From: a virus
DNA: 25,614 nucleotides
Virus record (IMG/VR): IMGVR_UViG_3300034101_002041
Location: 1 to 25,614 of that record
Reading direction: 5' to 3' (one strand)
In this document: positions 10,496 to 25,614 of the stretch, piece by piece
Position numbering within the stretch: the first letter of the stretch is position 1
Layout of the letters: each line of letters starts with the position of its first letter
Notes under the pieces: generated by a model
Told to the model about the DNA's origin: nothing
Databases searched by the model: none
The model's input: only the letters and a program-made list of their open reading frames with translations
Position numbers and translations under genes: made by a program

Positions 10496-10516
10496 CTCGA
10501 ATCTCGCAGATTCCGG

Positions 10517-10905: not shown

Positions 10906-10925
10906 TCAAAAGGAGGGCCCGAGCT

Positions 10926-11498: not shown

Positions 11499-11548
11499 AG
11501 GGTTAAATTAAGAATGGTTACTCCGGAATCTTTGAACCTGGGGCACGA

Positions 11549-12199
11549 TTAAGAAACCTCCCACAACTTTTTAGAGCCGTTCCGAAAGATACGAGTGTAG
11601 TCGTCGTGAAGAGTCTTCATCGTGCTGGGGGACATGGGCCCGAAGGAATATAGCTTTTTCTTTCCATTCGGGACAGGAATCCAGCCCCCGTCTTCTTGAA
11701 CATTCGAGTCAAACAGACAAAGCTCAACTTTCCTCCCTTTCTCGAAATGCTTTTGAAAAAACTCTAGAAATTCGGAAGGGTTGTAGGACCTCTCAGTGCC
11801 GATCAGCTCACCCGACACGAGGTTCCTGCTGATACCTTTGCGAATCTCGGAAGCTTCCTCGGAGGTAACGGGAAAATGGGCCTCAATGTACAGATACTCG
11901 TTAGGGTCAAAGCCGGCCGAGCACTCAACCTCGATCTTTAATCTAATCGGGCAAAGGGAAGTCCCTGAATACCACCCTTTGTTATTTTGGCAATTTGCAA
12001 GAAAGCGTAAAGCTGCTGGATGGCCCCCCGTCAATTCTGCCCTCTCACAAGTCATCCAAACCACCTCCCGAGAGAACCCCTCTTCAGACAGGTTCTCGAT
12101 ACCAAGAGTTCTCACACCAGCCTCAAAGCTATTGAGTTCTCGGTTTAGACCTTTCACTCGTCCGGCTTCTTGAGTGATGTGAAATTCGTAACGGGTCAT
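11549..12199 (-). CDS. Hypothetical protein
   Basis: A 216-residue protein (MTRYEFHITQEAGRVKGLNREL...). Mixed alpha/beta with a C-terminal GPMSPSTMKTLHDDYTRIFRNGSKKLWEVS. No motif recognised; no signal peptide or membrane segment. ATG 12199 lies 46 bases after the 12246 gene, probably one transcript. Function unknown. Confidence 0.6.
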   Translation of the reverse strand: MTRYEFHITQEAGRVKGLNRELNSFEAGVRTLGIENLSEEGFSREVVWMTCERAELTGGHPAALRFLANCQNNKGWYSGTSLCPIRLKIEVECSAGFDPNEYLYIEAHFPVTSEEASEIRKGISRNLVSGELIGTERSYNPSEFLEFFQKHFEKGRKVELCLFDSNVQEDGGWIPVPNGKKKLYSFGPMSPSTMKTLHDDYTRIFRNGSKKLWEVS

Positions 12200-12245
12200 T
12201 TGATAAGTGTGAAATGGAACTCTTAGTTGTTGGAAAAAAGAGGAA

Positions 12246-12659
12246 TCACCGAAAGAGGAAAACCCAATAGGGATAGCCGTTCGATTTGTTGCACCCTTCG
12301 ATGATTTCGCAAAGGGTCAGACCCGGCTTCTCCAGAAATTCCTCCAGAAATTTCTGAATCTTCATGGGGTCCCGATTTGACCAATTCTGTCCTTCGTTTC
12401 CGAAATGCTTCATACAGAGCTCGTCGTGCTTTTTGAAGTCCCACCCAAGAAGGCGATCAGAGTAGACCGAGTCTGTGTGATTGAGTCTCCCGGAGTGTTT
12501 CCAGATAGTGAAAGGGTCGTAGCTGTACGGGTGAGAGAACTTGGTTTTGACCCCTTTCGGTGGGTTGAAGAAATCAACCGTCCCCCAAGAGATTTCGCCC
12601 AAAAGTAATTCAGATATGAAATCACTGAGTTCTTTCTCGCTTTTTCGAAGGGGGTCCAT
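12246..12659 (-). CDS. Hypothetical protein
   Basis: A 137-residue protein rich in aromatic residues (SHPYSYDPFTIWKHSGRLNH, RLLGWDFKKHDELC). No family recognised. It is the first gene after the 12703 cassette and starts at ATG 12659, with a leader of about 35 nt. Confidence 0.6.
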   Translation of the reverse strand: MDPLRKSEKELSDFISELLLGEISWGTVDFFNPPKGVKTKFSHPYSYDPFTIWKHSGRLNHTDSVYSDRLLGWDFKKHDELCMKHFGNEGQNWSNRDPMKIQKFLEEFLEKPGLTLCEIIEGCNKSNGYPYWVFLFR

Positions 12660-12702
12660 AAGGTGAACAGGGGAAACAGTTGGGGTTTAGACCTATCACT
12701 CA

Positions 12703-12747
12703 ATTATAACGTCAATCCTGTCCCTCGGAAAGGGCGGGAAACCGCCC
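12703..12747 (-). promoter_or_regulatory. Hairpin-promoter cassette
   Basis: Hairpin GGGCGG-TTTC-CCGCCC (12732-12747; loop sequence inverted relative to most copies), TTTCCG (12726-12731), a 17-base spacer and TATAAT (12703-12708). It sits directly after the stop of the cREC-like gene. Confidence 0.65.
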
Positions 12748-12748
12748 C

Positions 12749-13126
12749 TCACAAAGGAGCGGCTGGGTATTTCTCAGCGAGTCTGAGGAACTTCTCCCAT
12801 CTCTCTGGTCGAGTCGCGCTCATAACCTTGAACTGATGGAGAGACCAGCGAATAGACCACGCTATACGATTTCTGCCCACAGGATTCGCAGAGTGGATCT
12901 GAAAGATTGGGGGGACGAAGTCGCCATCCCACCCTTCATTCCAGATTTTGTTTTCCAGCCAGGTGCAAACATCGTATCCGGTTCCTCTCTCATCGTCGCC
13001 CAGGTCGTGATCCAGGGAAACGACTTCGACATCACCCTGCTCAATTAGGGAGATAACCTCGCTTGGCCAGCGGCAACCTACCCACCCTTCAGGCGTGGGT
13101 CTCTCATCGTCCAGGAAGATTTTCAT
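12749..13126 (-). CDS. Cyclic-phosphate-processing receiver-like (cREC) protein
   Basis: A 125-residue protein with the receiver-like acidic cluster L5-D6-D7-E8-R9-P at the first strand, L38-D39-H40-D41-L-G-D44-D45 at the phosphoacceptor strand, then G-T-G-Y-D52-V and a tryptophan-rich end. LDDERP...SLDHDLGDDxxGTGYD is the pattern of the small receiver-like domains predicted to handle cyclic-phosphate RNA ends in RNA repair contexts. That function is a family prediction. It would fit with the Thg1 and CCA-adding enzymes here, although the genes are not in one operon. Confidence 0.7.
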   Translation of the reverse strand: MKIFLDDERPTPEGWVGCRWPSEVISLIEQGDVEVVSLDHDLGDDERGTGYDVCTWLENKIWNEGWDGDFVPPIFQIHSANPVGRNRIAWSIRWSLHQFKVMSATRPERWEKFLRLAEKYPAAPL

Positions 13127-13180
13127 CGAAGTGTGTCCTAAAAAGTCGAGGATTTTCGAAAATGCTCGAAAAAAGTTGTG

Positions 13181-13372
13181 TCACAATTTCTCAGAGAGCC
13201 CTCTCGAGAGCCCATTAAGAAAGCTGGTCCCCATGTGACTCCAGAACTCGGTGTCTGTCAGAGCGTCGGTGACACCCTTCAGAATTTCCGTAGGTGTCGC
13301 AGTCGATAGAGCCTCCTTCTCCTCAGGTGTGAGCTCATTCATAAACTCATTCAGAATCCGGTCGGTGTCCAT
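13181..13372 (-). CDS. Small hypothetical protein
   Basis: A 63-residue acidic, fully helical-looking protein (MDTDRILNEFMNELTPEEKEAL...). No family recognised. It lies between the 13393 and 12749 genes in a three-gene group read from the 13659 cassette. Confidence 0.55.
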   Translation of the reverse strand: MDTDRILNEFMNELTPEEKEALSTATPTEILKGVTDALTDTEFWSHMGTSFLNGLSRGLSEKL

Positions 13373-13392
13373 CTATACTCTAACAGTGGTGA

Positions 13393-13626
13393 TCAGCCGA
13401 GGTGGCCGTAAGCCATTGGCCGGGGAGCTTTCACAGCGGAGACAAGAGTCATTCGCGGTGCCGAACGATTGATCTGGTAACCGTCTTCTTCGAAAAGGTT
13501 CACATAGTAGCGACCATTCGGCAGGAGCCCCGCAGTAAAGTAGGATCCTGGCTCGTCCTCCGTGTAGGCCTGTCCGAAAGTCTCAGCTTCGGTTTCAGTG
13601 GTGAACACAAACTGAAGGTCGTCCAT
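13393..13626 (-). CDS. Small hypothetical protein
   Basis: A 77-residue acidic protein (MDDLQFVFTTETEAETFGQAY...NGRYYVNLFEEDGYQ). Beta-rich in appearance. It is the first gene after the 13659 cassette, with about 25 nt of leader. Function unknown. Confidence 0.6.
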   Translation of the reverse strand: MDDLQFVFTTETEAETFGQAYTEDEPGSYFTAGLLPNGRYYVNLFEEDGYQINRSAPRMTLVSAVKAPRPMAYGHLG

Positions 13627-13658
13627 TCGTTTGGCAGGTCCCTTGACTCGACCCCTTA

Positions 13659-13723
13659 ATTATAGGGCGTTTTCTCCGAAAACGGTGCGTTTTCCGCACG
13701 AGAAACTGGGCGGTTTACCGCCC
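13659..13723 (-). promoter_or_regulatory. Hairpin-promoter cassette, ACCGTT subtype
   Basis: Hairpin GGGCGG-TAAA-CCGCCC (13708-13723), a second hairpin GTGCG/CGCAC (13685-13699), ACCGTT (13681-13686), a 16-base spacer and TATAAT (13659-13664). The same ACCGNT-N16 layout recurs at 16367, 16965 and 19014. Bases 13641-13665 are identical to 16349-16373. Confidence 0.7.
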
Positions 13724-14013
13724 TATTCGTCTTCGATCAGCCGCGCCTGCCCTTCCTGAAGAAGGAATCCAAGAGCAGCCGCAGGGTACACTGCCCGGAA
13801 CTTATACTGTTTTCCATTCTTGCTCACCTTATTCAGGTGACAAAGCGTTGAACTCTGTGAATTTTGGGAGATCTCAGTGATACGGTAGAAGCCAGGGCCT
13901 ATCTTCGGGGGGAAGCACTCAGTCTCAATTTCCTCACTGATTTGAATCACCCTCCCCTTTTCAAAGCACCTTTTCATTCGTTCACAAGAACAATTTGGCT
14001 GCTCTGAGTCCAC
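13723..14013 (-). CDS. Small hypothetical protein, GTG start
   Basis: A 96-residue protein with an N-terminal C-S-C...C pattern (C8, C10, C16) and a beta-like body (GPGFYRITEISQNSQSSTLCHLNKVS). The start is GTG 14013, supported by AAAGGAGGTGG six bases upstream, the strongest Shine-Dalgarno in the window. It overlaps the end of the interrupted frame at 13974 by 40 bases. Function unknown. Confidence 0.7.
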   Translation of the reverse strand: MDSEQPNCSCERMKRCFEKGRVIQISEEIETECFPPKIGPGFYRITEISQNSQSSTLCHLNKVSKNGKQYKFRAVYPAAALGFLLQEGQARLIEDE

Positions 14014-14384
14014 TTCTCCACCTCCTTTTCGGTTACGGCTATCGGTAAGAACTTTTTCTTCTTGTCCCGAGGCTGAAGCATTTCGTAGTACCTGGTTTCT
14101 GGGATTGGCTTCCAGTCCGGGTTATCTTCTTTCACAGTTACCCAGACATCCCACTTTAGAGGGCCGTGGTAATCATACTCTTCGAAAAATTATTCGTTGT
14201 AGAGACAGTAAGTTCGAAAGTAGTACCTCGGATGGTACTTCTTAGACCACTTGAAGTATTCGTCTACCGTGGACTCCCGAAAAGCCTTTCGAATGTCCAT
14301 GGTGCCGACGTAACGGATCACGTAGGGACCGTAGTAGTCGCTTAAATGAGTCGCCAACAAAGGGACCACGCTCCCAGCGGTCAT
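13974..14384 (-). pseudogene. Hypothetical gene split by an in-frame TAA
   Basis: From ATG 14384 a 64-codon frame ends at TAA 14192-14190, but the same frame stays open for another 71 codons to TGA 13976-13974. The second half (EYDYHGPLKWDVWVTVKEDNPDWKPIP...) is protein-like and has no start codon near its beginning. The simplest reading is one 136-codon gene with a nonsense mutation; readthrough or a sequencing error are alternatives. The motif DYYGPYVIRY in the first half and DYHGPLKWDV in the second look like repeats. No function recognised. Confidence 0.6.
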
Positions 14385-14603
14385 TTAGGCCCCTCTAGAA
14401 AACTCTTGGCTCGCTCCCTCATCACCCTCGCTATAACGAGTCACGCAGGGGGTATAGCAGTCGAAAATCTGCTCGGCTAAGGCACTTTTCATTGGGTATT
14501 CAGTTGAACCTAAGTTCGATTTGAGGGATTGAGTGAATAACGGCCTGGAAGGAAGGCGAAGCCAGCTAACGGATCTGACCTGGGGATTTTCTTCCTCACT
14601 CAT
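14385..14603 (-). CDS. Small hypothetical protein, related to the next gene
   Basis: A 72-residue protein. DCYTPCVTRY near residues 48-57 matches DYYGPYVIRY of the following gene at both protein and DNA level, so this may be a shortened duplicate. Its start (ATG 14603) overlaps the previous stop as ATGAGTGA, and its stop abuts the next ATG (TAAATG). Function unknown. Confidence 0.5.
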   Translation of the reverse strand: MSEEENPQVRSVSWLRLPSRPLFTQSLKSNLGSTEYPMKSALAEQIFDCYTPCVTRYSEGDEGASQEFSRGA

Positions 14604-15003
14604 TGAGGACTTCGTAGGTTTCCTCGAAAATCTCTTTCTTCACAACTCCGTACTTCCCTTCGCCATGTCTAACAATAATGTCCACGGAAGAGTTGTACTG
14701 AAGGGTTTCTCCCCAAGAAGTGTTCACGGTTCCGGAATGGTTTGCCTCCTTGGCACTCTTGATGATCTTGATTGGACTGCAGGTTCCGTCTCCGTTGTCT
14801 ACCTTGAGCTCTCTAAAGGTTGAGGGGGGCATCGGATACTTTTCACCCCGAGGGCCAGTTAGGATATAGAAACCACGGTGATAGGATACTTCTCCTTCCA
14901 GGGTATCCAAGGTTCCATCATTCTCGGCAACTTCGAAGGGGTCTCGTGTGGGCCTCTTAAATGCTTTAAAGGAACCTTCTTGAAACCATTGTTCAGTGAT
15001 CAT
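14596..15003 (-). CDS. Hypothetical protein
   Basis: A 135-residue protein with VSYHRGFYILTGPRGEKYPMPPSTF in the middle, a pattern I associate loosely with small phage proteins carrying a PGDYG-like turn. The C-terminal RHGEGKYGVVKKEIFEETYEVL may be a second, weaker copy. Overlaps the upstream membrane-protein gene by 11 bases. Function unknown. Confidence 0.55.
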   Translation of the reverse strand: MITEQWFQEGSFKAFKRPTRDPFEVAENDGTLDTLEGEVSYHRGFYILTGPRGEKYPMPPSTFRELKVDNGDGTCSPIKIIKSAKEANHSGTVNTSWGETLQYNSSVDIIVRHGEGKYGVVKKEIFEETYEVLNE

Positions 15004-15376
15004 TTTGAATTTCTTGGTTAATTGTTTTTGAGCGTTCCGCCATTGTATAGGCGATTAGAAATGTGATTAAGTAGACGATTGCCAGAATAGGGTGCCCGAA
15101 ATACACAAGGGTCAGGATATAGGTCGCAGAAAGAAGCCTCCCCGATTTCTGGGGGTACTTCTGTGTCTTGTTGTTCTCCGCAACCTTTCTCCAAGCGTCT
15201 TCGCCCTGACTTTCGAGGCCGACGTAAATCAGGACAACAAGAATGAAGGCTATCCAGATAAGGAACCCTGTTAGGTTCATGAAGCCGCTAATCCCCTTAA
15301 CTGTCCCTAGAAACAAGGAAGTTCCGAAGAAAGCGTTGTATCCAAGAAATTTCAGGAAGTCTTTCAATTTTTCCAT
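14993..15376 (-). CDS. Small integral membrane protein
   Basis: A 127-residue protein with hydrophobic segments at about residues 13-30, 36-54 and 83-110; the last is long enough for two short passes. A charged loop (LESQGEDAWRKVAENNKTQKY) separates them. It probably sits in the host inner membrane. Holin, superinfection exclusion or other membrane roles are possible, but no lysis gene lies next to it. ATG 15376. Confidence 0.6.
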   Translation of the reverse strand: MEKLKDFLKFLGYNAFFGTSLFLGTVKGISGFMNLTGFLIWIAFILVVLIYVGLESQGEDAWRKVAENNKTQKYPQKSGRLLSATYILTLVYFGHPILAIVYLITFLIAYTMAERSKTINQEIQNDH

Positions 15377-15389
15377 ATTTTTGTTTTCC

Positions 15390-15869
15390 TCAGGACATCA
15401 CGGAGAAGCTGTTTTCCAGGTATTGCGGAAGGCGATTCATGTAGTTCTTATCAAACGACCAGATCACATCGTTTTCGATGTCCCACCAGAAGTCTGTGCA
15501 GAAGTACTTCTCCTGGGGATAATTCGCACCGAAACGAAAAACTTCCTTCAGTTGGGGATTACCGAACCGTAACTCCTTGAGAAACTCGGTATATTTTTCA
15601 AAGTCTTCCTCATTGAAGCAAGAGAAAACTCGCAGGGGGCTCTCATCCTGGGTGATCCACCGGACCAGACGGGTGGCGTGATAGGGAGCGCTGCGAATCC
15701 TGCGCAGGGAAGCGGGAAGAGCCCCAAACTCAAATTCAGAAGAACCCATGTAGTCCAGGCGTAGGGACTTCGTGAGAGTGGCCCCCTTCGGGTCCGCCAG
15801 AGGCCTTCGGATTTCCGCTCTCTGAATCAGCCAGGGTTCGGTGAATTTCTGAATTAGGGTCGATGCCAT
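15390..15869 (-). CDS. Conserved phage protein with LDYMGSSEFEFGALP motif
   Basis: A 159-residue protein. L-D-Y-M-G-S-S-E-F-E-F-G-A-L-P at residues 38-52 is a motif I recall from proteins of unknown function across unrelated phages (recollection, not a search). The C-terminal half contains FRFGANYPQEKYFCTDFWWDIENDVIWSF. Probably an alpha/beta protein acting in the cytoplasm. Part of the run of genes from 16341 to 13723. Start ATG 15869. Confidence 0.65.
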   Translation of the reverse strand: MASTLIQKFTEPWLIQRAEIRRPLADPKGATLTKSLRLDYMGSSEFEFGALPASLRRIRSAPYHATRLVRWITQDESPLRVFSCFNEEDFEKYTEFLKELRFGNPQLKEVFRFGANYPQEKYFCTDFWWDIENDVIWSFDKNYMNRLPQYLENSFSVMS

Positions 15870-15902
15870 TTTCGTGTGAGAGAAGAAAAGTGCAGAAACG
15901 CC

Positions 15903-16103
15903 TCAAGAGGCGAGGTGGAAGCTTATGTTTGTGACCTTTAAGTGGGCCACATAGTTGTCGTATTCTTTCTGCCAGTGAGAGGCTTTTTCCAGGAGCTTCT
16001 GGAAGTAGTCAACATCAGGAATCCCCGCTGCCAAGTAGGTGTTGGCGGTTCGGGTCCAGAAATTTCGCTGGAGAATAACTTCGTCGCCGTGGTTGGTGAG
16101 CAT
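15903..16103 (-). CDS. Small hypothetical protein
   Basis: A 66-residue, helix-rich protein (MLTNHGDEVILQRNFWTRTANTYL...). No family recognised. Co-directional with, and close to, its neighbours. Other open frames over the same bases look like shadows because they lack a plausible start context. Confidence 0.5.
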   Translation of the reverse strand: MLTNHGDEVILQRNFWTRTANTYLAAGIPDVDYFQKLLEKASHWQKEYDNYVAHLKVTNISFHLAS

Positions 16104-16137
16104 GGTAGAGAAACAGAGGGGCTTCTAGCAGGGGCAT

Positions 16138-16341
16138 TTAGGAAGCCAGGGCCACCCAGCTGCACCCGTCCTCTACACTTGAAGTCACCAAACCCTTCTT
16201 GACGAGAGAGCCGAGCACGCCAGCGGTCTCACGGGTCTCGTCGGCAAGCTCGTGGAGCCAGCCACAGCCAGGCTCGTCCATACCTTCGGTAATAGCAGCC
16301 AGAAGGGTTTGCTCTTTGGCAGTAAGGGTGACAGCGGACAT
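16138..16341 (-). CDS. Small winged-helix-like protein
   Basis: A 67-residue protein: LTAKEQTLLAAI, then ELADETRETAGVLGSLVKKGLVTSS and a short beta end (GCSWVALAS). This order of helices ending in LVKKGLV fits a MarR-like winged helix-turn-helix, suggesting DNA binding. ATG 16341 follows CAAGGAAG and is about 26 bases from TATAAT. It could regulate the group it leads. Confidence 0.55.
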   Translation of the reverse strand: MSAVTLTAKEQTLLAAITEGMDEPGCGWLHELADETRETAGVLGSLVKKGLVTSSVEDGCSWVALAS

Positions 16342-16366
16342 GAGGCTTCCTTGACTCGACCCCTTA

Positions 16367-16431
16367 ATTATAGCGTGCTTTCGCCGAAAGCGGTGGGTTT
16401 CTCTTGCGAGAAACTGGGCGGTTTACCGCCC
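16367..16431 (-). promoter_or_regulatory. Hairpin-promoter cassette, ACCGTT subtype
   Basis: Hairpin GGGCGG-TAAA-CCGCCC (16416-16431), second hairpin GTTTCTC-TTGC-GAGAAAC (16397-16414), ACCGCT (16389-16394), a 16-base spacer and TATAAT (16367-16372). It is the sister copy of the 13659 cassette. Confidence 0.7.
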
Positions 16432-16944
16432 TACCTTCACCGCTGCGGACATGAACACCCACCCTGCGTTGTGCATCCAAGAGTGGCTCTCCCTGTCATC
16501 AAAGATCACAGACTCCCCCGCTTTCAACCTCGTCATGTGACCGGCTGTGTAAAGCTCCCCTTCGTGGAACAATTCCCACTCACGATTCGACCCCTTAGGC
16601 GAATCGGCGGTCCGAAAACCCCCGAGGAAGGTTAGAAGAGTTAAACCGGATATGTCGTCGTCATGGGTGGGGACGGACCCCCAACCGAATATCAAAGTTC
16701 TCTCAGGAACTCGTGGGTGCAGTTTGTAAATGTTCCGTGAAACTTCGTTCAGACGGGAAAGACAAAGGTCAACAGACGAGTAGAGGTACTCCGGGAGATT
16801 GACGGTGGCTATCTTATTGTAGCCGTAATCAGGGTTGTGGGATAAGTGTCGACCCCATGTGCTGTTCCAGACCTCTTTCATGACCTTCTCGAAGTGGATT
16901 TGCTCAGGGGATAGGGCCCCCGGAATACTAATTGCTTTCTTCAC
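16423..16944 (-). CDS. Possible 2OG-Fe(II) oxygenase (double-stranded beta-helix)
   Basis: A 173-residue protein. T-H94-D-D96-D before a GLTLLTFLGG strand, then H136, KAGESVIFDD, and H154/H158 near the end, follow the HxD...H order of 2-oxoglutarate/Fe(II) dioxygenases or cupins. Such enzymes hydroxylate or demethylate small molecules, proteins or nucleic acids and are common in cyanophages. The substrate is unknown, and the arginine or lysine for 2-oxoglutarate is not certain. Its stop falls inside the hairpin of the 16367 cassette. Confidence 0.5.
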   Translation of the reverse strand: MKKAISIPGALSPEQIHFEKVMKEVWNSTWGRHLSHNPDYGYNKIATVNLPEYLYSSVDLCLSRLNEVSRNIYKLHPRVPERTLIFGWGSVPTHDDDISGLTLLTFLGGFRTADSPKGSNREWELFHEGELYTAGHMTRLKAGESVIFDDRESHSWMHNAGWVFMSAAVKVGR

Positions 16945-16964
16945 AGCTGGATTTGCTTTCCCTT

Positions 16965-17029
16965 ATTACAGGGTGCTTTAAAGAATAACGGTGCGGATTT
17001 TCGAAAGAAAATTGGGCGGTTTCCCGCCC
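16965..17029 (-). promoter_or_regulatory. Hairpin-promoter cassette, ACCGTT subtype
   Basis: Hairpin GGGCGG-GAAA-CCGCCC (17014-17029), second hairpin ATTTTC-TTTC-GAAAAT (16997-17012), ACCGTT (16987-16992), a 16-base spacer and TGTAAT (16965-16970). It lies just after the nadA stop and drives the 16944 gene. Confidence 0.65.
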
Positions 17030-17031
17030 CT

Positions 17032-17952
17032 TTAGGAAAGCTCCAACATTCTCTTCAACGGCTCAAGGGCTCTCTCACGTAGGTCCTCTTTTATCTCGAT
17101 TCGAGGGCCCAAGTCCCGAAGGCAGTTGCGAACTTTTTCGATTGTGTTCAATTTCATGAACGGGCACTCGTTACAACTGCAACCGTTTCGGTTCGGGACG
17201 GTCAAGAGTGTCTTTCCGGGGACCAAACTCTTCATCTTGTGAAAGATCCCCGGCTCCGTCAAGACTATGAAGGTGTCCGCACCGCTTTCTTGAACTCTCT
17301 TAAGGAGAGCGCTAGTGGACCCAATGAAGTCCGCCATTCGAAGGAGCACCTCTTCGCACTCCGGGTGGGCAATCACCTCGCACCCCGGATTCGCTAGCCA
17401 AAGCTCCATAAATGCCTCTTCACTGAACGCTTCGTGAACCTGGCAGCTTCCGTTCCACAAAACCATGTCCCGCCCCGTCTGCCCTTCAACCCAACGACCA
17501 AGGTTTTTGTCGGGGGCGAAGATTATAGGTGTCCTTTCGGGAACACTTTGAACCATGCGGACAGCGTTGCTGCTTGTGCAAATTAAATCGCTTTGGGCCT
17601 TAATCTCCGCCGAACAGTTGATGTAACTGATTACGAAGTGGTTCGGGTATTCTTCCTTGAACTTTCGGAATTCTCCTGGCGGGCACCCCTCAGCCAAACT
17701 ACAACCTGCATTGAGGTCCGGGAGGAGGACAGTTTTCGTGGGGTTCAGGATCTTAGCAGTCTCTGCCATGAAATGTACTCCGCAGAAAACAATCACGTCT
17801 GCTTGAGTTTCCGCAGCTTTTCTGGAAAGGTCCAGGGAATCCCCGACGAAATCTGCGACGTCCTGAATCTGAGAGTCTTGGTAGTAATGGGCGAGGATCA
17901 CAGCGTTGCGCTGTTCCCTGAGCTTCTGAATCTCGTCGAGGTGGCTTTTCAT
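17032..17952 (-). CDS. nadA: Quinolinate synthase NadA
   Basis: A 306-residue protein that condenses iminoaspartate with dihydroxyacetone phosphate to quinolinate, the precursor of NAD. It has ILAH22[19 protein letters not shown], and the three regions that bind the [4Fe-4S] cluster: G83-C84-S-L-A-E-G-C-P, N-G-S-C170-Q-V-H-E-A-F, and N-G-C-S-C-N-E-C263-P-F-M-K-L-N-T. The length is normal and all key motifs are present, so it should be active. No nadB or nadC is visible, so substrate and next step would come from the host. It starts 4 bases after the 17957 gene, so the two form an operon. A phage copy may support NAD supply during infection. Confidence 0.95.
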
Positions 17953-17956
17953 TTGA

Positions 17957-18676
17957 TCACATCGGTGGGAGTTTTGGACCGTTGCTCGACTCTGCCAGGA
18001 GGGCTTTCTCTCCCGCCTTTAGGAGGGCATTAGTTGAATACGCTTCGATCTCGGCTTTTGCAGCCTCTACGATGTCCTCCGTAGCCTCCTTGAAGGAAGT
18101 CACTGCGAAGTTCAGGTTGGAGGGGAGATTTCCCACCCTGTTTTCCAAAGACTTCGATAGTTCCTTCAACTTGGTCTTGCTCACAGACTTTTCCTCGGTG
18201 AGTTTACGAAGATTCTCCGAGATTGTCCGAATCTCCTCGAGGGCACTCCTCAAGCTCTCTTTGAACTCTGCGTTAAACTGGTCCTTTCGGCTCTCTTTTG
18301 GAACCTCGATTGAGGGCACCACCTCATAGGAACTTCCTGGGGAGGGAGCGTAAGAGAGGGTCACAGGAGTCGCTTGGGATCGTCCCGACCCAGAGACAAA
18401 TCTGGCCCACTGGGCTTCTGACATATGGAACTCAAGGAGAGTTCCCGTCGGAAACTGCCAATCCCGTCCTAGCTCCCTTTCATTCTTTGCCGTCTGAATC
18501 GTAACCGAAATGAAGTGGTTGTGTGAAAGGTCGGACCCGAACAGATTAACCCCTGGGCTTGCTTGAGGTCGACTCACAGTCACGAGTCCGAAAGCCGGGT
18601 GGGTGGAACGAATAGCCCCCTTCTTCGAGAGGGAATCTACTGATTCAAAGTGTGGCGGTTGAGATTTCTTAATCAC
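17957..18676 (-). CDS. Hypothetical protein with coiled-coil tail
   Basis: A 239-residue protein. The N-terminal half ([35 protein letters not shown]...[30 protein letters not shown]) looks like a compact beta domain that I recall from conserved phage proteins of unknown function. Residues about 130-220 form a long charged helix, probably a coiled coil. Start GTG 18676, with AAGG about 12 bases upstream. It leads nadA from a good sigma70-type promoter. Confidence 0.6.
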
Positions 18677-18706
18677 CGGAGTTTGACCTTGTGTAGTGTG
18701 TGGCTA

Positions 18707-18734
18707 ATTATCTATCAGTGCAAGAACCAGTCAA
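18707..18734 (-). promoter_or_regulatory. Sigma70-type promoter of the nadA operon
   Basis: TTGACT (18729-18734), a 16-base spacer and GATAAT (18707-18712) on the minus strand, 30 bases before GTG 18676. The -35 matches consensus in five of six bases. It lies in the end of the upstream gene and lacks the GGGCGG hairpin, so nadA may be regulated differently from its neighbours. Confidence 0.65.
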
Positions 18735-18987
18735 CTTCCCGTTCAGCCTGTTCAATCTCGTTTTGAAACTGAAAGAAAGTGTTCACGACGTCTTCAACAG
18801 GGTTATCCGACTCCGAGGAAACGTGATCACGAGCGACCACGAAAAGCTCCTGGTAAAGGTTGTCGAAACCTTCTTTGGTTCCGCAATACCCGACCCACGC
18901 GTCATCATGGAGCATAGTGGAGTGAAGTTCAATGGCCGCCGAGAGGGCAACAGCCTCGGGGGACACGGTGTCGATAACTTTCGTCAA
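18715..18987 (-). CDS. Hypothetical protein
   Basis: About 90 residues (TKVIDTVSPEAVALSAAIELHSTML...), helical and acidic. The longest start behind the 19014 promoter is TTG 18987; the next ATG would give about 66 residues. Similar helical proteins of this size occur in many phages, but I recognise no family. Function unknown. Confidence 0.5.
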   Translation of the reverse strand: MTKVIDTVSPEAVALSAAIELHSTMLHDDAWVGYCGTKEGFDNLYQELFVVARDHVSSESDNPVEDVVNTFFQFQNEIEQAEREVDWFLH

Positions 18988-19013
18988 AGCTGTAAGGCGT
19001 AACTCACCCTTTA

Positions 19014-19078
19014 ATTATAGCCCGGTTCTGGCTAAAACGGTTCGACTTTTCGTTAGAAAAGTGGGCGGTTTACCGCCC
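19014..19078 (-). promoter_or_regulatory. Hairpin-promoter cassette, ACCGTT subtype
   Basis: Hairpin GGGCGG-TAAA-CCGCCC (19063-19078), second hairpin ACTTTTC-TAAC-GAAAAGT (19045-19062), ACCGTT (19036-19041), a 16-base spacer and TATAAT (19014-19019). The first hairpin touches the stop of the upstream gene. Confidence 0.7.
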
Positions 19079-19722
19079 TAGAAGGGGTGGCTCGGAGTTA
19101 GAACCACGGGGCTAGGGGAACCCTTGACTCTAGCGAGGTAGCCGCAATGCTCCTCGCTCCAAATCGGTGTGTCGTAACAGGAGTCAACGACGGTAGAAGT
19201 AGGGATATGGGGATAGCCGTAAGAGAATCTTTCGTTAATGGAGTCGATTTCCCTCTGAGTCATCTTTCCAGCTCCACACCCGATCGTACTCGCCCTCCAG
19301 CTCAATTTCCATGTCAGGAATTCGCTTTCAGCAATGGTGCCACCGCACCGGTAGATTCGGGCAGGAGAGTAACCGACATACCGGGGGTCTCCGGGTTGCC
19401 CGACCTCAACAGACACGAAGCAGTCATCTTGCCACGCCCAGTCTTGACTGTCAGAAGGCGAAAAGATGGTGTACACAAAGAACCTGTCGAGATCAGTTTC
19501 GTAGTTGCAGGAGTTGTCGCGATAAGCGATGGTGTACTGCTTTCCGGTGAGCTCCTTCAAGTGTCCTAGAACCTCGGAAGAAGAACTTTCCAGCCAGTCC
19601 TCCTCAAGAAGGCTCTGAAGTTCTTCGGGAAGGTCTAGAGGCTGACCTAGGGACTCTTTTAAGTGGTCCTCTAAGGAGATCACACAGTAGTGGAACTCAG
19701 GGTCGTATATGATTTCAGCCAT
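19078..19722 (-). CDS. Hypothetical protein
   Basis: A 214-residue protein from ATG 19722 (MAEIIYDPEFHYCVISLEDH); an in-frame GTG at 19788 would overlap the upstream gene. Acidic, with many tryptophans and several cysteines (C97, C125, C149, C175, C206 approximately). No family recognised. It follows the 19730 gene by seven bases. Confidence 0.6.
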   Translation of the reverse strand: MAEIIYDPEFHYCVISLEDHLKESLGQPLDLPEELQSLLEEDWLESSSSEVLGHLKELTGKQYTIAYRDNSCNYETDLDRFFVYTIFSPSDSQDWAWQDDCFVSVEVGQPGDPRYVGYSPARIYRCGGTIAESEFLTWKLSWRASTIGCGAGKMTQREIDSINERFSYGYPHIPTSTVVDSCYDTPIWSEEHCGYLARVKGSPSPVVLTPSHPF

Positions 19723-19729
19723 TGCTGGA

Positions 19730-20005
19730 TTAGTAGGTTTCTTCGAGGGGTGCAGATGGGAGGACCCATTCAATATTGAAAGTTTCACACTGGGCGAGGA
19801 AATCCTCTTTTGAGGTCGCGTAGACGTAGCCGATCCCTCTCGCTGAAATCTGTGTTACGGAATCAAAAACTTTCGTCTGAGCTACGTCTCTGACTACCTG
19901 ACCGAATCCCCAGTCGTAATTCGCGTAGCATATGACGGAACATTTTCGAGAAAGCTCCCAGAGCTTTTCGTAGTCTCGAGAAAGAGAGTATATATGGTCA
20001 TTCAT
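19730..20005 (-). CDS. Hypothetical protein
   Basis: A 91-residue alpha/beta protein: MNDHIYSLSRDYEKLWELSRK, then VICYANYDWGFGQVVRDV and IGYVYATSKEDFLAQC. No family recognised. It sits between the zinc-finger-like 20017 gene and the 19078 gene in a compact group. Confidence 0.6.
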   Translation of the reverse strand: MNDHIYSLSRDYEKLWELSRKCSVICYANYDWGFGQVVRDVAQTKVFDSVTQISARGIGYVYATSKEDFLAQCETFNIEWVLPSAPLEETY

Positions 20006-20016
20006 GGGAGACTTTT

Positions 20017-20340
20017 CTACTCAACCTGAGGAACACGACGTTCAGCTTCTAAGCGAGTGCGACTTCTACCGATGTGATAGCCGTCACAGAAGGCGCACTT
20101 GTAGACACTGAATGTCGCTCCGTGTTTTTCTGCCATTCTTGAAGCTGCCTTCTTGGCAGACTTTTCGCTATACGACACCTTTGGTGTTCCCGTCCTTAAA
20201 GATATGTGGGAGTTGCGAGAGAAAAGTCCCCACGCAACACCTGTCACAAAGAAGTTTCGAAAAGCTCTCCCCAAGGGTAGCTGGTCCTTAAGGGCCAGAG
20301 CTAGATTCCTCAAAGAGAGTCGTACTTTTTCACCAGCCAT
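20017..20340 (-). CDS. Small basic protein with CxxC-H knuckle
   Basis: A 107-residue, strongly basic protein ending in a zinc-knuckle-like Y-K-C81-A-F-C84-D-G-Y-H88-I-G-R-S-R. Short phage proteins with ...KCxFCxxxHxGR ends are common and probably bind nucleic acid; this is inference. The start at ATG 20340 overlaps the Toprim gene by 31 bases; a later start at MAEKHG is possible. Confidence 0.6.
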   Translation of the reverse strand: MAGEKVRLSLRNLALALKDQLPLGRAFRNFFVTGVAWGLFSRNSHISLRTGTPKVSYSEKSAKKAASRMAEKHGATFSVYKCAFCDGYHIGRSRTRLEAERRVPQVE

Positions 20341-20846
20341 TGAACATACTCATTGGGGCAATCACCAAGATCCTGCCCGTCTTCCGGACAGTATTCTACG
20401 AAATTTCCAAACTTCGCCAGCTTTCTGCCAGCCTTGTCATTATCAGCGACGACAACCACAGGGCGAGCGAGGCATTGCAACCAGTTTCCAAGGTCCCTTT
20501 GAGGGTCATTGCAACATACTGCCAGAGCGGGCTGTCCGAGGTCTGTTAGACGGGCAGCATCAAAAACACCTTCAGTTAGGAAAACTGGGCCTGAGCTTTG
20601 GTACAGGCTTTCAAGACCCCAAACTCCGTGAGTCGGCTGCTTTCTGTAGGTGAAATAGCGGGCTTCCCTCGGACCACGTTTTTGTGGTGTCTTGGGGGCA
20701 TCCGGGCGATGCTGCTGGAAACCCACCAAAGCTCCGGAAAGGTTGTAGAGGTAAAACGTAACAGTCCTTTCCTCTTCGTCCAGAACTGGGCGATGAAGGT
20801 CCTCGCGGAGGTGTCTCCTCTTCAGGTATTCTCGTAGAGTTTCCAC
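20310..20846 (-). CDS. Stand-alone Toprim-domain protein (primase-like)
   Basis: A 178-residue protein. V-F-L-T-E92-G-V-F-D-A and V-V-V-V-A-D135-N-D137-K-A-G-R carry the glutamate and DxD metal ligands of Toprim domains, as in DnaG-type primases and primase-helicases. Residues 25-70 (TVTFYLYNLSGALVGFQQHRP...YFTYRKQPTHGVWGLE) match the primase segment before Toprim. Zinc-binding and helicase domains are absent, so a partner or a split primase is likely. The start is GTG 20846; an in-frame TGA lies just upstream. It may act in replication. Confidence 0.75.
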   Translation of the reverse strand: METLREYLKRRHLREDLHRPVLDEEERTVTFYLYNLSGALVGFQQHRPDAPKTPQKRGPREARYFTYRKQPTHGVWGLESLYQSSGPVFLTEGVFDAARLTDLGQPALAVCCNDPQRDLGNWLQCLARPVVVVADNDKAGRKLAKFGNFVEYCPEDGQDLGDCPNEYVQWLVKKYDSL

Positions 20847-20868
20847 GGGAGGTTCTTCGACTCACTTT

Positions 20869-20912
20869 ATTATAGTGAGTCGCCAAGACGAGTAAAGGGC
20901 GGTTAACGGCCC
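20869..20912 (-). promoter_or_regulatory. Hairpin-promoter cassette for the Toprim gene
   Basis: Imperfect GGGCCG-TTAA-CCGCCC hairpin (20897-20912), TTTACT (20891-20896), a 16-base spacer and TATAAT (20869-20874). Confidence 0.65.
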
Positions 20913-21133
20913 CTCTTAGCTTGCTCTTCGGTTATCCGTATCAGTTGAGAAGGGTATTGCTTGAATTCCCCTTCCCCTCCAACAGCCGCTCCCTGCCAAG
21001 GTTTCGGAAAGTTCACAAAAGCGTAACACTTCGTGAATCGAAGGATCTTTCCGATAGCAAAATCCCTATAACCAGGGATAACTAAGACCACTAGATCCCC
21101 TATCGAGAGTTCTTGACCCAAGAAATCTTTCAT
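20903..21133 (-). CDS. Small beta-barrel-like phage protein
   Basis: A 76-residue protein: DFLGQELSIGDLVVLVIPGYRDFAIGKILRFTKCYAFVNF. The order G-Q-x-L-x-x-G-D-x-V followed by G-x-I-x-x-F is typical of small SH3/KOW-like phage proteins of unknown role. ATG 21133 lies three bases after the stop of the 44-residue membrane peptide gene. Confidence 0.6.
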   Translation of the reverse strand: MKDFLGQELSIGDLVVLVIPGYRDFAIGKILRFTKCYAFVNFPKPWQGAAVGGEGEFKQYPSQLIRITEEQAKRGR

Positions 21134-21136
21134 GAG

Positions 21137-21271
21137 TCAACGACGATAAGGAGAGTTCCAGTAAGAGCGCCAAACGCTAACAAGAATAACAATCGTCGAA
21201 GCAACACCAGCAAGGCCAAGGAAGGTAACAGCATCACCTTGAAAAGAATAAGAAGCGACAGAAGGGTCCAT
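21137..21271 (-). CDS. 44-residue single-pass membrane peptide
   Basis: MDPSVASYSFQGDA, then one hydrophobic segment (VTFLGLAGVASTIVILVSVW), then a short basic tail (RSYWNSPYRR). The positive-inside rule puts the N-terminus outside. ATG 21271 is about 17 bases after the expected transcription start of the 21295 cassette. A 60-codon leucine-rich frame over the same bases starts at GTG 21312, upstream of that promoter, so I prefer this frame. It could help lysis or act on a host membrane complex; unknown. Confidence 0.5.
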   Translation of the reverse strand: MDPSVASYSFQGDAVTFLGLAGVASTIVILVSVWRSYWNSPYRR

Positions 21272-21294
21272 GATTTCGGGACGGGTTCGAACTC

Positions 21295-21339
21295 ATTATG
21301 GGTCGAGAACACTCCCCCGTAAAGGGCGGTTTCCCGCCC
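21295..21339 (-). promoter_or_regulatory. Hairpin-promoter cassette
   Basis: GGGCGG-GAAA-CCGCCC hairpin (21324-21339), TTTACG (21318-21323), a 17-base spacer and CATAAT (21295-21300). It drives the 44-residue membrane peptide and the 20903 gene. Confidence 0.65.
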
Positions 21340-21412
21340 ACCTTCGTCTGAGTTCTAGTTGTCGTCGGATCTGTTTCGGGACATCTCGATCAGAGAGAGT
21401 TCCAATTTCAAG

Positions 21413-21601
21413 CTATTTAGACTTTCCTTTAGGTTCGAGTTTTCGAAGGATAATTCTTCCTGCGAAGGCTTCGATTGACAAAGAGTCCCCTTCTTTCCAG
21501 GAAACTGCTTCAAGAATCTCTTCAGGGAAGTCCAGAAGGAGGTTTCCTTCCTCGTCACTGCCGAGGGTCGTGGTGACGGAGTCATGTTGTTCAAAGGGCA
21601 T
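21413..21601 (-). CDS. AbrB/MazE-like DNA-binding protein
   Basis: A 62-residue protein. GSDEEGNLLLDFPEEILEAVSWKEGDSLSIEAFAGRIILRKL is the swapped-hairpin pattern of AbrB/SpoVT and MazE-type domains: a strand ending in a proline, P-x-x-[IL]-L, then [WL]-K-E-G-D. These dimers bind DNA as regulators or antitoxins. No toxin-like partner is recognised. ATG 21601 overlaps the 21591 gene by 11 bases. Confidence 0.7.
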   Translation of the reverse strand: MPFEQHDSVTTTLGSDEEGNLLLDFPEEILEAVSWKEGDSLSIEAFAGRIILRKLEPKGKSK

Positions 21602-21782
21602 TATTTTCAATAATCTGGAGGTCCAGCCTCGGGTTCGACATTAGCAAGTCGTTTCGTAGATTCTGAATTCTCTTACGGTCGGAAGAGGAGTTGGAGAGCT
21701 CAACGTGGACTTTCACGATACTTTTATCTCTAAACTCAACGAGTTTCAAAGCCCCAAGGGGGAAATTTCTTGAAGGGATCAA
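21591..21782 (-). CDS. Small hypothetical protein, TTG start
   Basis: A 63-residue protein (IPSRNFPLGALKLVEFRDKSIVKVHVELSNSSSDRKRIQNLRNDLL...), one strand-rich half then a basic helix. Only a TTG (21782) fits as start. TATAAATA lies 18 bases upstream. It could be a partner of the AbrB-like product because the genes overlap, but no toxin motif is visible. Confidence 0.45.
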   Translation of the reverse strand: MIPSRNFPLGALKLVEFRDKSIVKVHVELSNSSSDRKRIQNLRNDLLMSNPRLDLQIIENNAL

Positions 21783-21799
21783 CGTCTTAAGAATTTAAC

Positions 21800-21807
21800 T
21801 ATTTATA
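21800..21807 (-). promoter_or_regulatory. TATAAATA box
   Basis: TATAAATA on the minus strand between the Dps-like gene and the 21591 gene. It is identical to the late promoter core of T4-type phages, but with a single copy noted here an ordinary -10 box is as likely. Confidence 0.3.
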
Positions 21808-21829
21808 GCTCCACGCAAGCCAAGTAAAC

Positions 21830-22270
21830 TCAGAGACCTAAAAAGGCCTGGAGAAGGTATTGAACTGAAAGGGTCTTGTCGGATAGGTTCTGAATGTGGT
21901 TCTCGAGGGCGGGAAAGCGAGGGTCTGGTTCCAGTTTATCGATTTTCTCTAGAAAGAGTGTCAAGGAAGCCATCAGAGAAACTGAGTAGTCCAGAATCAG
22001 AGCTGCCAGTTCCTTGCAATTGTAAGAGTCTAAGGCTATGCCGGGGCCAGAGAATTCTTCAAAACCAGGGCTGTATTGAAATGCCCGTAGAGTCTCAATC
22101 AGACCGTCCATTAACCCTGAAAGGTCGTCGTAAATTCTTCCAAACAAAAGGTGAGAACCATAGAAGTCGGTACCACGGACATTCCAGTGGGACATTCTGG
22201 AGACCATGATAGCGTCATTCAGGTCCTTGATGATTCTTGCTGAATAGGATTGTAGCTCTTTCGGATTCAT
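21830..22270 (-). CDS. Dps-like ferritin-family protein
   Basis: A 146-residue four-helix-bundle protein. S-H28-W-N-V-R-G-T-D-F-Y-G-S-H40-L-L-F-G44...D55-G-L-I-E59 matches the Dps ferroxidase pattern (H51, H63, D67, D78, E82 in E. coli). The D67 equivalent is Gly44, so one iron ligand is missing. Dps proteins store iron, detoxify peroxide and bind DNA; here there is no basic N-terminal tail for DNA binding. I start at ATG 22270, which overlaps the upstream stop as ATGA; a TTG three codons earlier is possible. Confidence 0.75.
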   Translation of the reverse strand: MNPKELQSYSARIIKDLNDAIMVSRMSHWNVRGTDFYGSHLLFGRIYDDLSGLMDGLIETLRAFQYSPGFEEFSGPGIALDSYNCKELAALILDYSVSLMASLTLFLEKIDKLEPDPRFPALENHIQNLSDKTLSVQYLLQAFLGL

Positions 22271-22521
22271 TTTTGGCAAGCGTAAAGTTCGATGAAGATG
22301 GATTTGCCTCGGCGATTTAGAACGAGGAATTCGTTGTCGGGGTTGTAGTTTGACAGAACGGTAAGTAGGTTTTCCTCAAACTCCGACTCCTGTTCTACAG
22401 AGACTTCCGCCTGAAGCTTAGAAACTTCGTTCCATGGGAAAAAGAAGCATTCCCCTGGGGAGACTAGGTGCACTCCCCGAAGGCCCCTGTACTTTTCAAA
22501 GCTCTTGGACAAAGTTTCCAT
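22267..22521 (-). CDS. Small hypothetical protein
   Basis: An 84-residue protein (METLSKSFEKYRGLRGVHLVSPGECFFFPWNEV...NEFLVLNRRGKSIFIELYACQK), mixed beta and helix with an acidic centre. No family recognised. Its stop overlaps the Dps-like start and it begins one base after the 22523 gene, so the three are probably one operon. Confidence 0.6.
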   Translation of the reverse strand: METLSKSFEKYRGLRGVHLVSPGECFFFPWNEVSKLQAEVSVEQESEFEENLLTVLSNYNPDNEFLVLNRRGKSIFIELYACQK

Positions 22522-22522
22522 T

Positions 22523-23137
22523 TTAATATACTATCTGCCAGTTTCCGTCCTTCTTCTTTGAGATTTCAAACTTGAAGCTCTTGCCCCCATCCTCTCCTTG
22601 AGAGTCGTAGAAGATTCCTGAGAAGCTCCCCCCGTCTTCTCCCTGTAGGTAACGATTTGCCTTGTTGGGGGGATTTCCTGTTAAGTCCGTCACCGAAGTC
22701 ACCCCGTCGGTGTAGACCGAAGAAATGACTTTCTTTAGGAAAAGTTCCATCTTGTCGGACATATCCTTTTCGCTTTCTGCGAAGTTGGCGAAATCCTCTG
22801 AGAAAGAAAGTTGCTCGTCAGTGACTGAGAGCAGCTTTTCAGCCTGGATCTCCAGAATAGACTCAAGGTTCGGCCAACTTTCAGGTTCCGTGTGGGATAA
22901 TTTACGAACAACCTCGGAGAATTCCTCGTAAGTTCCCTCAGATAAACTTACTTTATTCAGGAGGTTGAGAAGGCTAACTTTTCCGTCAGAGTACTCAAAA
23001 CCAAGACCCTCAAGGTAAGAGTCGGGGATTCGATTTAAGTCCCCCCCGGACCCCTTCCAAAGGGTATCTGCCACCCTTAAGGAAGTGTCTCTGTTTACCC
23101 TATCTCCCGAAAATGAGGGGTTTTTGTCCAGCACCAT
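22523..23137 (-). CDS. Hypothetical acidic protein
   Basis: A 204-residue protein, acidic and serine-rich (EGLGFEYSDGKVSLLNLL..., SVTDEQLSFSEDFANFAESEKDMSDKM). The tail GEDGGKSFKFEISKKKDGNWQIVY has repeated GEDGG turns. No family recognised. It is the last gene with accessory-region character before the base composition shifts at the tail module. Confidence 0.6.
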   Translation of the reverse strand: MVLDKNPSFSGDRVNRDTSLRVADTLWKGSGGDLNRIPDSYLEGLGFEYSDGKVSLLNLLNKVSLSEGTYEEFSEVVRKLSHTEPESWPNLESILEIQAEKLLSVTDEQLSFSEDFANFAESEKDMSDKMELFLKKVISSVYTDGVTSVTDLTGNPPNKANRYLQGEDGGSFSGIFYDSQGEDGGKSFKFEISKKKDGNWQIVY

Positions 23138-23299: not shown

Positions 23300-24229
23300 T
23301 TACGGTATAGCCGCCGCGATGGCGTTGATCAGTGCGGTCACGCGGGCGTCAAGTAGGGCGAGATCGAGGGATTCGCCGATGGAGTAGCAGGCGATGCGGG
23401 CGTTGGAAAACACCGCGTTTCCATTGCGGCAGAAAACAAAAGTAGATATGTTGTCTGGGGTGTTAGAAGTCAATGCCGCGTTAGTATTTGTCCCGGCTCG
23501 TCGTGACGTAAAAGAAGAAGAAACTGATCGGCTTGCCCCCAAAAAGCCTGTGTCTGGACTTGCGGCTGCTATGGACTGGACGCTAGTGTTATTAACAGAG
23601 AAGTTTGTAGTAGATGCAGTCAAGTCACTCGCTATTTGACAAGTGCCTGGAACTGCTGCCGCATTTGTCCCCAAATGAATCCCGGGCGCACCAGACTGAG
23701 CTGCTGTCAGGAAAACACTCACATGTTTATTGTTTTGCGGATCAGCGTTGTTATTTCGGCCGGTGTTCAGATAGTTATTCGTTCCATTCCCCGCCGTCCC
23801 CGTTTTTCGGTTGTAATTCCACCCGCCTTCAGTGCCAAACCGTGTCGGCGCAGGCCCCACCAACGGCACCAACGCCCCGGCCAGTGTGCGGGCTCCGGCC
23901 ATGATCGGCGCGGCCTTGATGATGCTGTTGGCTTGGCTCAGCACGCCGCCGCTGGTGCCCAGATCGCCAACGTTGATTGAGTCGCGGATGAACACCCCGT
24001 AGTCGAGGCCCACAGGGCCATTCATCCCCACCCGCCACTGGGTCTGCAGTTTCAGGAACCACGCCAGCGCTTCGCAGTTCTCCAGCAGGATCCCGAACGT
24101 CTTGGGCCGCTGCTCTGCCTCAGGCACCTCCAGGCCGAACATGGCCGCAGCGTCGGCCGCGTCCTTGCCGTCGTCAGCATCACCCTTCGCGGCGCCAGCG
24201 AGGAACAGCGCCGCGTCGATCAGTTTTTT
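23300..24229 (-). CDS. GT-type tail chaperone extension fused to a tail-fibre-like C-terminus
   Basis: This frame has no start of its own; it is entered from the 24678 gene by a -1 shift at 24229-24223. It first reads KKLIDAALFLAGAAKGD..., then LAWFLKLQTQWRVGMNGPVGLDY (to about 23998), the pattern of the DUF1799-type tail assembly chaperone second part. Instead of ending there, it continues into RDSINVGDLGTSGG..., PLVGPAP..., NRKTGTAGNGTNNYLNTGRNNNADPQNN, GFLGASRS and YSIGESLDLALLDARVTALINAIAAAIP, which resembles the tip domains of cyanobacterial phage and prophage fibres. GC content falls inside this part. A real fusion after deletion and a misassembly are both possible. Confidence 0.6.
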   Translation of the reverse strand, partial: KKLIDAALFLAGAAKGDADDGKDAADAAAMFGLEVPEAEQRPKTFGILLENCEALAWFLKLQTQWRVGMNGPVGLDYGVFIRDSINVGDLGTSGGVLSQANSIIKAAPIMAGARTLAGALVPLVGPAPTRFGTEGGWNYNRKTGTAGNGTNNYLNTGRNNNADPQNNKHVSVFLTAAQSGAPGIHLGTNAAAVPGTCQIASDLTASTTNFSVNNTSVQSIAAASPDTGFLGASRSVSSSFTSRRAGTNTNAALTSNTPDNISTFVFCRNGNAVFSNARIACYSIGESLDLALLDARVTALINAIAAAIP

Positions 24230-24684: not shown

Positions 24685-25614
24685 TCAGAAGAAAACGAGG
24701 CGGGTTTCGTCGTTGCCGGCTGCGGACTTGGGCAGCGCGGTAAATGGTATCTGCAGCATGCTGACCCCGTCAGAATCAGGGAACGAGAGGTCGCCGCTGA
24801 TCGCGGCCTTGGGGCAGAAGAAGATGGAGCTTTCGGTAGCCGTCGTGCCCTGCTGCACAACGAACGGGCCATCGCTGGCGCCGCTGTTGTCAGCTGCAGC
24901 GGTGAAGAAATTCTTCGTCGCCACAGGCGGGTTCTCGATCGTGATTGTGCCGTTCGGGTTGGGGCGGTCGGTGATGCGAGCGTGAGGTTCGCAGCCGATC
25001 AGCGAGCGGAACACGGTTGACAGGCCCCAGTCGAAGGTGAAGCCTTCGGAGCAGGGATCAAAGCCTTGGAACCGGATTGCCTTGGTGTGGGTCGGGGTGA
25101 CGGGCACCGGCTCGGCTTGGTTGCTGTAGACGAATCCTTCAGCGCTCCTAGCGGTGGGGGTGGTGTAGCGGCCGACGCCGGTGATGGTGAAGGTGCCGTA
25201 GCCGTTCAGGGTGCTGTTGAGGGCCGGGCTGCCGCGGAATCCATCGATCCGGTGAACGTTGGCGCCATCCTTCACCGCCACGATGGTGCAGCTGCTGCCG
25301 TTGCCGAACGTGCTGATCGGCTGCAGCAGGGACAGCGCGGGGATCTTGTAGCCCACTGCGCCGCCGGTGAACGATGCGGTAGAAGGAACCACCGTCACCT
25401 GCCTGGTGGCCCCGTCGTGCGCCACGATCACGCCTTTGTGGCCCGTGTTGGCGCCGCTGGTGATCTCGATTGGCAGCCCCAGGTAGGCGTCGCTTGCGGG
25501 GTTGCTGCCGCCCAGGTCCGCCAGGGTGAGGGTGTTGGCGCCGCCTGCGGTGGCAGTGCCGGTCAGTTCGGCGAATGCCGAGACGTTCATACCGGCTGCC
25601 TGCAGCAGTGGCGT
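24685..25614 (-). CDS. Major tail (tube) protein, partial at the window edge
   Basis: An ATG at 25590 gives 301 residues, but the frame is open to the window edge and the eight extra codons read TPLLQAAG, typical of tail tube proteins, so the true start is probably outside. The body is beta-rich with many Gly/Thr/Ser (LTGTATAGGANTLTLADLGG, GFRGSPALNSTLNGYGTFTITGVGRYT, AIRFQGFDPCSEGFTFDWG). It is followed by the tail chaperone pair, as in lambda-like phages. It would polymerise into the tail tube. Codon use is much richer in G and C than in the accessory genes. Confidence 0.7.
   Translation of the reverse strand, partial: TPLLQAAGMNVSAFAELTGTATAGGANTLTLADLGGSNPASDAYLGLPIEITSGANTGHKGVIVAHDGATRQVTVVPSTASFTGGAVGYKIPALSLLQPISTFGNGSSCTIVAVKDGANVHRIDGFRGSPALNSTLNGYGTFTITGVGRYTTPTARSAEGFVYSNQAEPVPVTPTHTKAIRFQGFDPCSEGFTFDWGLSTVFRSLIGCEPHARITDRPNPNGTITIENPPVATKNFFTAAADNSGASDGPFVVQQGTTATESSIFFCPKAAISGDLSFPDSDGVSMLQIPFTALPKSAAGNDETRLVFF

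What the first reader, a model, noticed from the sequence alone, without database searches (positions are those of the whole stretch)
23300..24229. Tail chaperone frame runs directly into a fibre-like domain; tape measure gene missing
After the normal end of the GT-type extension (about 23998) the frame continues without a stop into a tail-fibre-like tip domain. The expected next genes (tape measure and tail tip) are absent, and small accessory genes follow. Either an in-frame deletion joined two distant tail genes, as in a defective prophage or satellite, or two sequences were joined in assembly.
Basis: partly seen in the sequence, partly recalled or inferred. Interest (0 to 1): 0.7.

Follow-up and report, generated by a model that had tools for sequence, protein, structure and literature searches.

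The report
Chimeric contig joining two cyanophages
The odd gene is two ordinary tail genes of a small cyanobacterial phage spliced at a shared 10-base word, sitting at the end of a contig that otherwise belongs to a different, much larger phage, so it is most likely a sequencing or assembly chimera rather than a new kind of tail protein.

Summary
The open frame is real (minus strand, 24142-23300, 280 aa), but the GT chaperone does not run past its normal end. It is cut short. In 43 of 43 related contigs this DUF1799 domain continues for 33 or more residues (...VFIQCAKDEGVKRRDRVWLLEDLRLIEREYLGAARG) and stops; where checked, an intact 1060-1332 aa tape measure gene follows. The window switches within 10 bases, at a word present in both genes (GTGTTCATCC, 23986-23995), into about codon 51 of a fibre-tip gene (phrog_17104). 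In intact relatives that gene lies upstream of the chaperone (about 3.4-3.6 kb), so an in-frame deletion cannot give this order. Cyanosiphovirus DNA ends at the fibre stop codon (about 23300). Everything left of it (48-49% GC) is largely collinear with a 277-kb phage that has a sheath-like protein and no detectable DUF1799; there, 14 of 14 relatives carry a glycosyltransferase where the window has the fibre. No other IMG/VR or GTDB contig matches the join. The tape measure is absent because the siphovirus tail module is only a 2.3-kb end piece. Best reading: a chimeric contig from two unrelated phages, with microhomology at the internal join. Reads were not available, so true recombination is not excluded.

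The parts
24685..25614 (-). major-tail-type protein of a cyanosiphovirus, 5' end cut by the contig end (open)
   Evidence: phrog_290 E 6e-6; intact 397-aa homologue in L058 etc.; tblastn to S-CBS1, S-LBS1, S-CBS3; about 95.6% DNA identity to L053/L058
24220..24678 (-). G-type tail assembly chaperone, intact
   Evidence: phrog_569 E 4e-10 and weak Phage_TAC_4, below its cut-off; same position in the intact relatives read
24223..24229 (-). -1 slippery heptamer A AAA AAC at the end of G
   Evidence: in the window; present in the G/GT overlap of 42 of 42 relatives checked
23996..24142 (-). GT (DUF1799) segment, truncated; about 33-36 C-terminal residues missing
   Evidence: PF08809 profile positions 18-48 of 80 against 12-77 in intact relatives; 43/43 relatives have the complete end
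23986..23995 (-). 10-bp shared word GTGTTCATCC (VFI in the same frame in both genes) = the join
   Evidence: side-by-side DNA of GT-type and fibre-type relatives; 12-base scan switches from 100% GT-like to 100% fibre-like here
23300..23985 (-). fibre-tip gene (phrog_17104) from about codon 51 to its stop; first 47-50 codons missing
   Evidence: phrog_17104 E 6e-59; about 80-91% DNA identity to cyanosiphovirus fibre genes at 24005-23721 and about 80-93% at 23410-23293; intact 277-291 aa genes in L005, L047
23138..23299 (.). 162-bp stretch of no known relative; siphovirus homology ends at the fibre stop codon
   Evidence: DNA after the fibre stop differs from siphovirus relatives; GC 0.49 against 0.57-0.69 in the siphovirus relatives sampled; no hits
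1..23137 (-). segment of a large phage with non-tail genes: 204-aa protein, ferritin/Dps-like, primase-like, NadA, tRNA nucleotidyltransferase, Thg1-like, HNH
   Evidence: 15 gene products matched to the 277-kb record L109-L122, most of them collinear over its first 37.5 kb; families

Best explanation
The 280-aa frame is not a functional gene form. It is a chimeric join at the end of a metagenomic contig. The right 2.3 kb (23300-25614) comes from a cyanosiphovirus (distantly S-CBS1/S-LBS1-like, 64% GC). Within it the DNA jumps, at a 10-bp word shared by the GT chaperone gene and the fibre-tip gene, from GT into the fibre-tip gene that normally lies about 3.4-3.6 kb upstream. At the fibre stop codon the contig passes into a large phage lineage (48-49% GC) whose 277-kb relative has a sheath-like protein; it makes up the other 23 kb. 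The probable mechanism is microhomology template switching during DNA amplification or library making, or a faulty assembly path. The two-parent composition and the switch points are shown; the laboratory or assembly origin is inferred.
For: Intact GT end in 43/43 related contigs; TMP of 1060-1332 aa after GT in the five intact contigs read, confirmed as TMP by profile for one. Sharp switch at a 10-bp shared word, an event of about 8e-6 for a random join. Fibre-tip gene upstream of MTP and GT in relatives. Siphovirus homology ends at the fibre stop. Left part has no DNA match to any siphovirus locus but matches the 277-kb record, which has a weak sheath hit and no DUF1799 hit. In 14/14 relatives of the left part a glycosyltransferase lies where the window has the fibre. 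No other record matches the join. MDA chimeras are known to join at 2-21 bp of complementarity (PMC1855051); chimeric contigs were common in simulated viromes (PMC4247695).
Against: The GT::fibre join is in frame (1 in 3 by chance) and keeps an open frame. Ten bp is too short for an ordinary k-mer assembler error, so a real DNA molecule, in vitro or in vivo, must be assumed unless the true parents share more. The fibre sits where the left lineage has variable fibre-tip genes nearby, so the left phage might really own a fibre of this type. No reads were available; whether the sample was amplified is unknown.
Confidence: 0.8

Rival explanations
1. Natural illegitimate recombination: the large phage took up a siphovirus block (MTP-G-GT-N::fibre-C) near its fibre-tip locus, making a hybrid fibre or a dead fragment.
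For: Fibre-tip modules of this family occur in siphoviruses, an Autographiviridae phage and S-CBWM1, so they move between phage groups; the left lineage has variable tip genes near this locus; the join is in frame.
Against: Siphovirus part undecayed and about 95.6% identical to siphovirus contigs; an MTP and chaperones would have no use in a phage with its own tail; no second record with the join; join lies 1.6 kb from the contig end.
Confidence: 0.15
2. In-frame deletion in a siphovirus, prophage or satellite joined GT to a downstream fibre and removed the tape measure and tail tip.
For: GT and a fibre domain are fused and no TMP follows.
Against: The matching fibre-tip gene is upstream of MTP, G and GT in intact relatives, so a simple deletion gives the opposite order; what follows is a different phage.
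Confidence: 0.03
3. The long chaperone is a normal family form with a fibre-like C-terminal domain.
For: Continuous open frame.
Against: 43/43 relatives end normally; the conserved second half of DUF1799 is missing.
Confidence: 0.01

Closest known systems
Lambda-type G/GT tail assembly chaperones (DUF1799, PF08809) of cyanosiphoviruses
   Same: G gene, A AAA AAC slippery site and first 52 residues of the GT segment match intact relatives closely (about 80-90% protein identity)
   Different: the last 33-36 residues and the following tape measure gene are missing; fibre sequence follows
phrog_17104 fibre-tip proteins (277-291 aa in L005, L047)
   Same: C-terminal about 230 residues, with conserved 5' and 3' blocks and a variable middle
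   Different: first 47-50 residues missing; placed after GT instead of before the tail terminator
Chimeric contigs and MDA template-switch chimeras (PMC1855051, PMC4247695)
   Same: abrupt switch of parent sequence at a short shared word; two unrelated genomes in one contig
   Different: 85% of MDA chimeras are inverted, here GT and fibre keep direct orientation; reads were not examined

Membership tests
GT tail assembly chaperone (DUF1799) | complete DUF1799 domain of about 80 positions | tested here: not met
   only positions 18-48 matched; intact relatives 12-77
GT tail assembly chaperone (DUF1799) | -1 slippery site at the end of G | tested here: met
   A AAA AAC at 24223-24229, in 42/42 relatives
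GT tail assembly chaperone (DUF1799) | tape measure gene directly downstream | tested here: not met
   none in the window; present in the five intact relatives read
phrog_17104 fibre-tip protein | full-length match of about 264 positions | tested here: not met
   window matches 54-264; L005 gene matches 1-264
chimeric contig | adjacent segments with distinct best relatives and composition | tested here: met
chimeric contig | absent from independent assemblies | tested here: met
chimeric contig | read depth or read pairs broken at the join | not testable with these tools
   no reads available
defective prophage or satellite | integrase, attachment sites or satellite hallmark genes | not tested
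   no dedicated search; none among the gene products identified

The most novel reading that the evidence does not exclude
A large contractile-tailed cyanophage really carries a siphovirus-derived block in which microhomology recombination fused the start of a tail chaperone to a host-recognition tip, a natural hybrid adhesin formed across phage types.
Probability: 0.1. Interest if true: 0.4.

Novelty: not a real feature. Interest (0 to 1): 0.1.

Why it matters
Mainly as a warning. The record reads as one 25.6-kb virus, but its last 2.3 kb belong to another phage. Gene-fusion, host-range or taxonomy claims drawn from the right end of this contig, such as a chaperone-fibre fusion or tape-measure loss, would be wrong. 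If read data showed the join to be real, it would be a case of cross-type adhesin capture.

Tried and rejected
In-frame deletion: rejected by gene order. Natural long family form: rejected by 43 relatives. Fibre native to the relatives of the left lineage: no phrog_17104-like match in 5 of their records, so not shown, though weakly possible (several of those records are fragments). Second microhomology at the fibre stop: the other frame reads ...GGYTVTPTRVPVYEVLKAN* across it and looks like the tail of another ORF, but searches for a donor found nothing relevant; left open. Excess of contig ends inside the fibre gene as a sign of graph branching: the fibre is cut in about 6 of 41 contigs, roughly what contig length alone would give by a rough estimate, so not used. 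Structure prediction was not run because a chimera's fold would not inform.

Full report
Observation. The record is a single 25,614-bp linear virus contig. On the minus strand a 280-aa frame (24142-23300) holds a DUF1799 segment (residues 21-51, PF08809, above its cut-off) and a fibre-like segment (residues 75-280, phrog_17104, E 6e-59). The frame is open from about 24262 and overlaps the end of the G-type chaperone gene (24220-24678) across a -1 slippery heptamer A AAA AAC at 24223-24229, which 42 of 42 relatives keep. So a G/GT arrangement is present. No tape-measure-sized ORF exists in the window.

What the relatives show. A search of IMG/VR with the 280-aa protein returned two main sorts of contig: those matching residues 1-59 at about 80-90% and those matching residues 48-280 at about 42-62%; none matched across the whole length in one piece. 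Of the contigs with the GT gene, 43 of 43 have a frame that goes on from ...DYGVFI (or a close variant) with QCAKDEGVKRRDRVWLLEDLRLIEREYLGAARG or similar and then stops (several of these contigs are near-duplicates). In the five intact contigs read gene by gene a gene of 1060-1332 aa follows (directly in four of them; in L058 after two small genes), a tape measure protein by profile in the one tested. The GT domain in the window is therefore cut in its conserved core, not followed by an addition after its normal end.

The join. Aligned in register, the window is GT-like down to 23986 and fibre-like from 24005. The two gene types share only GTGTTCATCC without mismatch there (window 23986-23995), in the same frame. 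In 12-base steps the best identity changes from 100% GT-type to 100% fibre-type at this word. Shared words of 10 bp or more at a random join have a probability near 8e-6, so the join was guided by the short homology. A degenerate search for any gene bearing the joined peptide found no other record in IMG/VR or in GTDB genome contigs.

Gene order excludes a deletion. In L005, L023 and L047 the order is: fibre genes, fibre-tip gene (277-295 aa), a 149-153 aa gene, major tail protein, G, GT, tape measure; the 149-aa gene of L005 is a tail terminator by profile. In L005 and L047 the tip gene's VFI word is about 3.4-3.6 kb upstream of that in GT. A deletion would leave the first part of the tip gene fused to the end of GT. 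The window has the reverse product, as in a backward jump, a tandem duplication or an excised circle.

The other side. Siphovirus homology ends at the fibre stop codon. GC falls from 0.63 in the last 100 bp of the fibre to 0.49 after it; in the siphovirus relatives sampled it stays at 0.57-0.69. The 23 kb to the left has no DNA match to any of the loci found by the fusion protein. Its gene products match a 277-kb record, most of them in the same order over its first 37.5 kb. That record has a weak tail-sheath match, under the family's cut-off, and no DUF1799 match, and shows no match to the window's MTP, G, GT or fibre. In all 14 relatives of the 204-aa gene (22523-23137) a glycosyltransferase lies directly upstream, where the window has the fibre.

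Interpretation. The contig holds DNA of two unrelated cyanophage-like lineages, and the siphovirus part is itself rearranged at a microhomology. In lambda the T part of gpGT binds the major tail protein while the G part binds the tape measure (PMC5009743); a GT lacking the second half of its domain, with no tape measure gene beside it, is not expected to work (inference). Template switching at short complementarities of 2-21 bp is documented for multiple displacement amplification (PMC1855051), and chimeric contigs are common in simulated viromes (PMC4247695). A microhomology chimera made in amplification or library preparation is the likeliest cause; an assembly path error is possible if the true parents share a longer word than the sampled relatives; in vivo recombination is not excluded. 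No reads were available, so this step is inferred.

Verdict. An artefactual or non-functional fusion; low interest as a biological feature, useful as a flag on this record.

Noticed in passing
17032-17952 (minus): Intact NadA (quinolinate synthase, E 3e-118) in the large-phage part, with a 73% identical homologue in the 277-kb record: an NAD-synthesis gene in this phage lineage.
   Followed up: partly
2052-2816 and 9146-9886 (minus): tRNA-His guanylyltransferase (Thg1-like) and a tRNA nucleotidyltransferase, both about 65% identical to the 277-kb record.
   Followed up: partly
21830-22279 (minus): Ferritin/Dps-like small protein next to the 204-aa gene, conserved in synteny in the large-phage relatives.
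   Followed up: no
23240-23330 (minus): A second frame reads GGYTVTPTRVPVYEVLKAN* across the fibre stop codon and looks like the C-terminus of another ORF, a possible second microhomology join; no donor found.
   Followed up: partly
L083, L095, L082 upstream of the 204-aa gene: Collagen-like fibre gene (L083, L095) and, further down, a tip-like gene that differs completely between relatives (laminin-G-like, glycine-rich or repeat-like by eye), then a glycosyltransferase: a variable host-recognition locus.
   Followed up: partly
window 23300-24005 and loci L002-L043: Fibre-tip genes keep about 285 bp at the 5' side and about 100 bp at the 3' end at roughly 80-93% DNA identity around a diverged middle, suggesting tip exchange through conserved flanks.
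   Followed up: partly
PHROG families 680, 569, 17368: These G and GT chaperone families are labelled 'tail length tape measure protein', as are some database entries (Pseudomonas phage PS-1); the label looks wrong.
   Followed up: no
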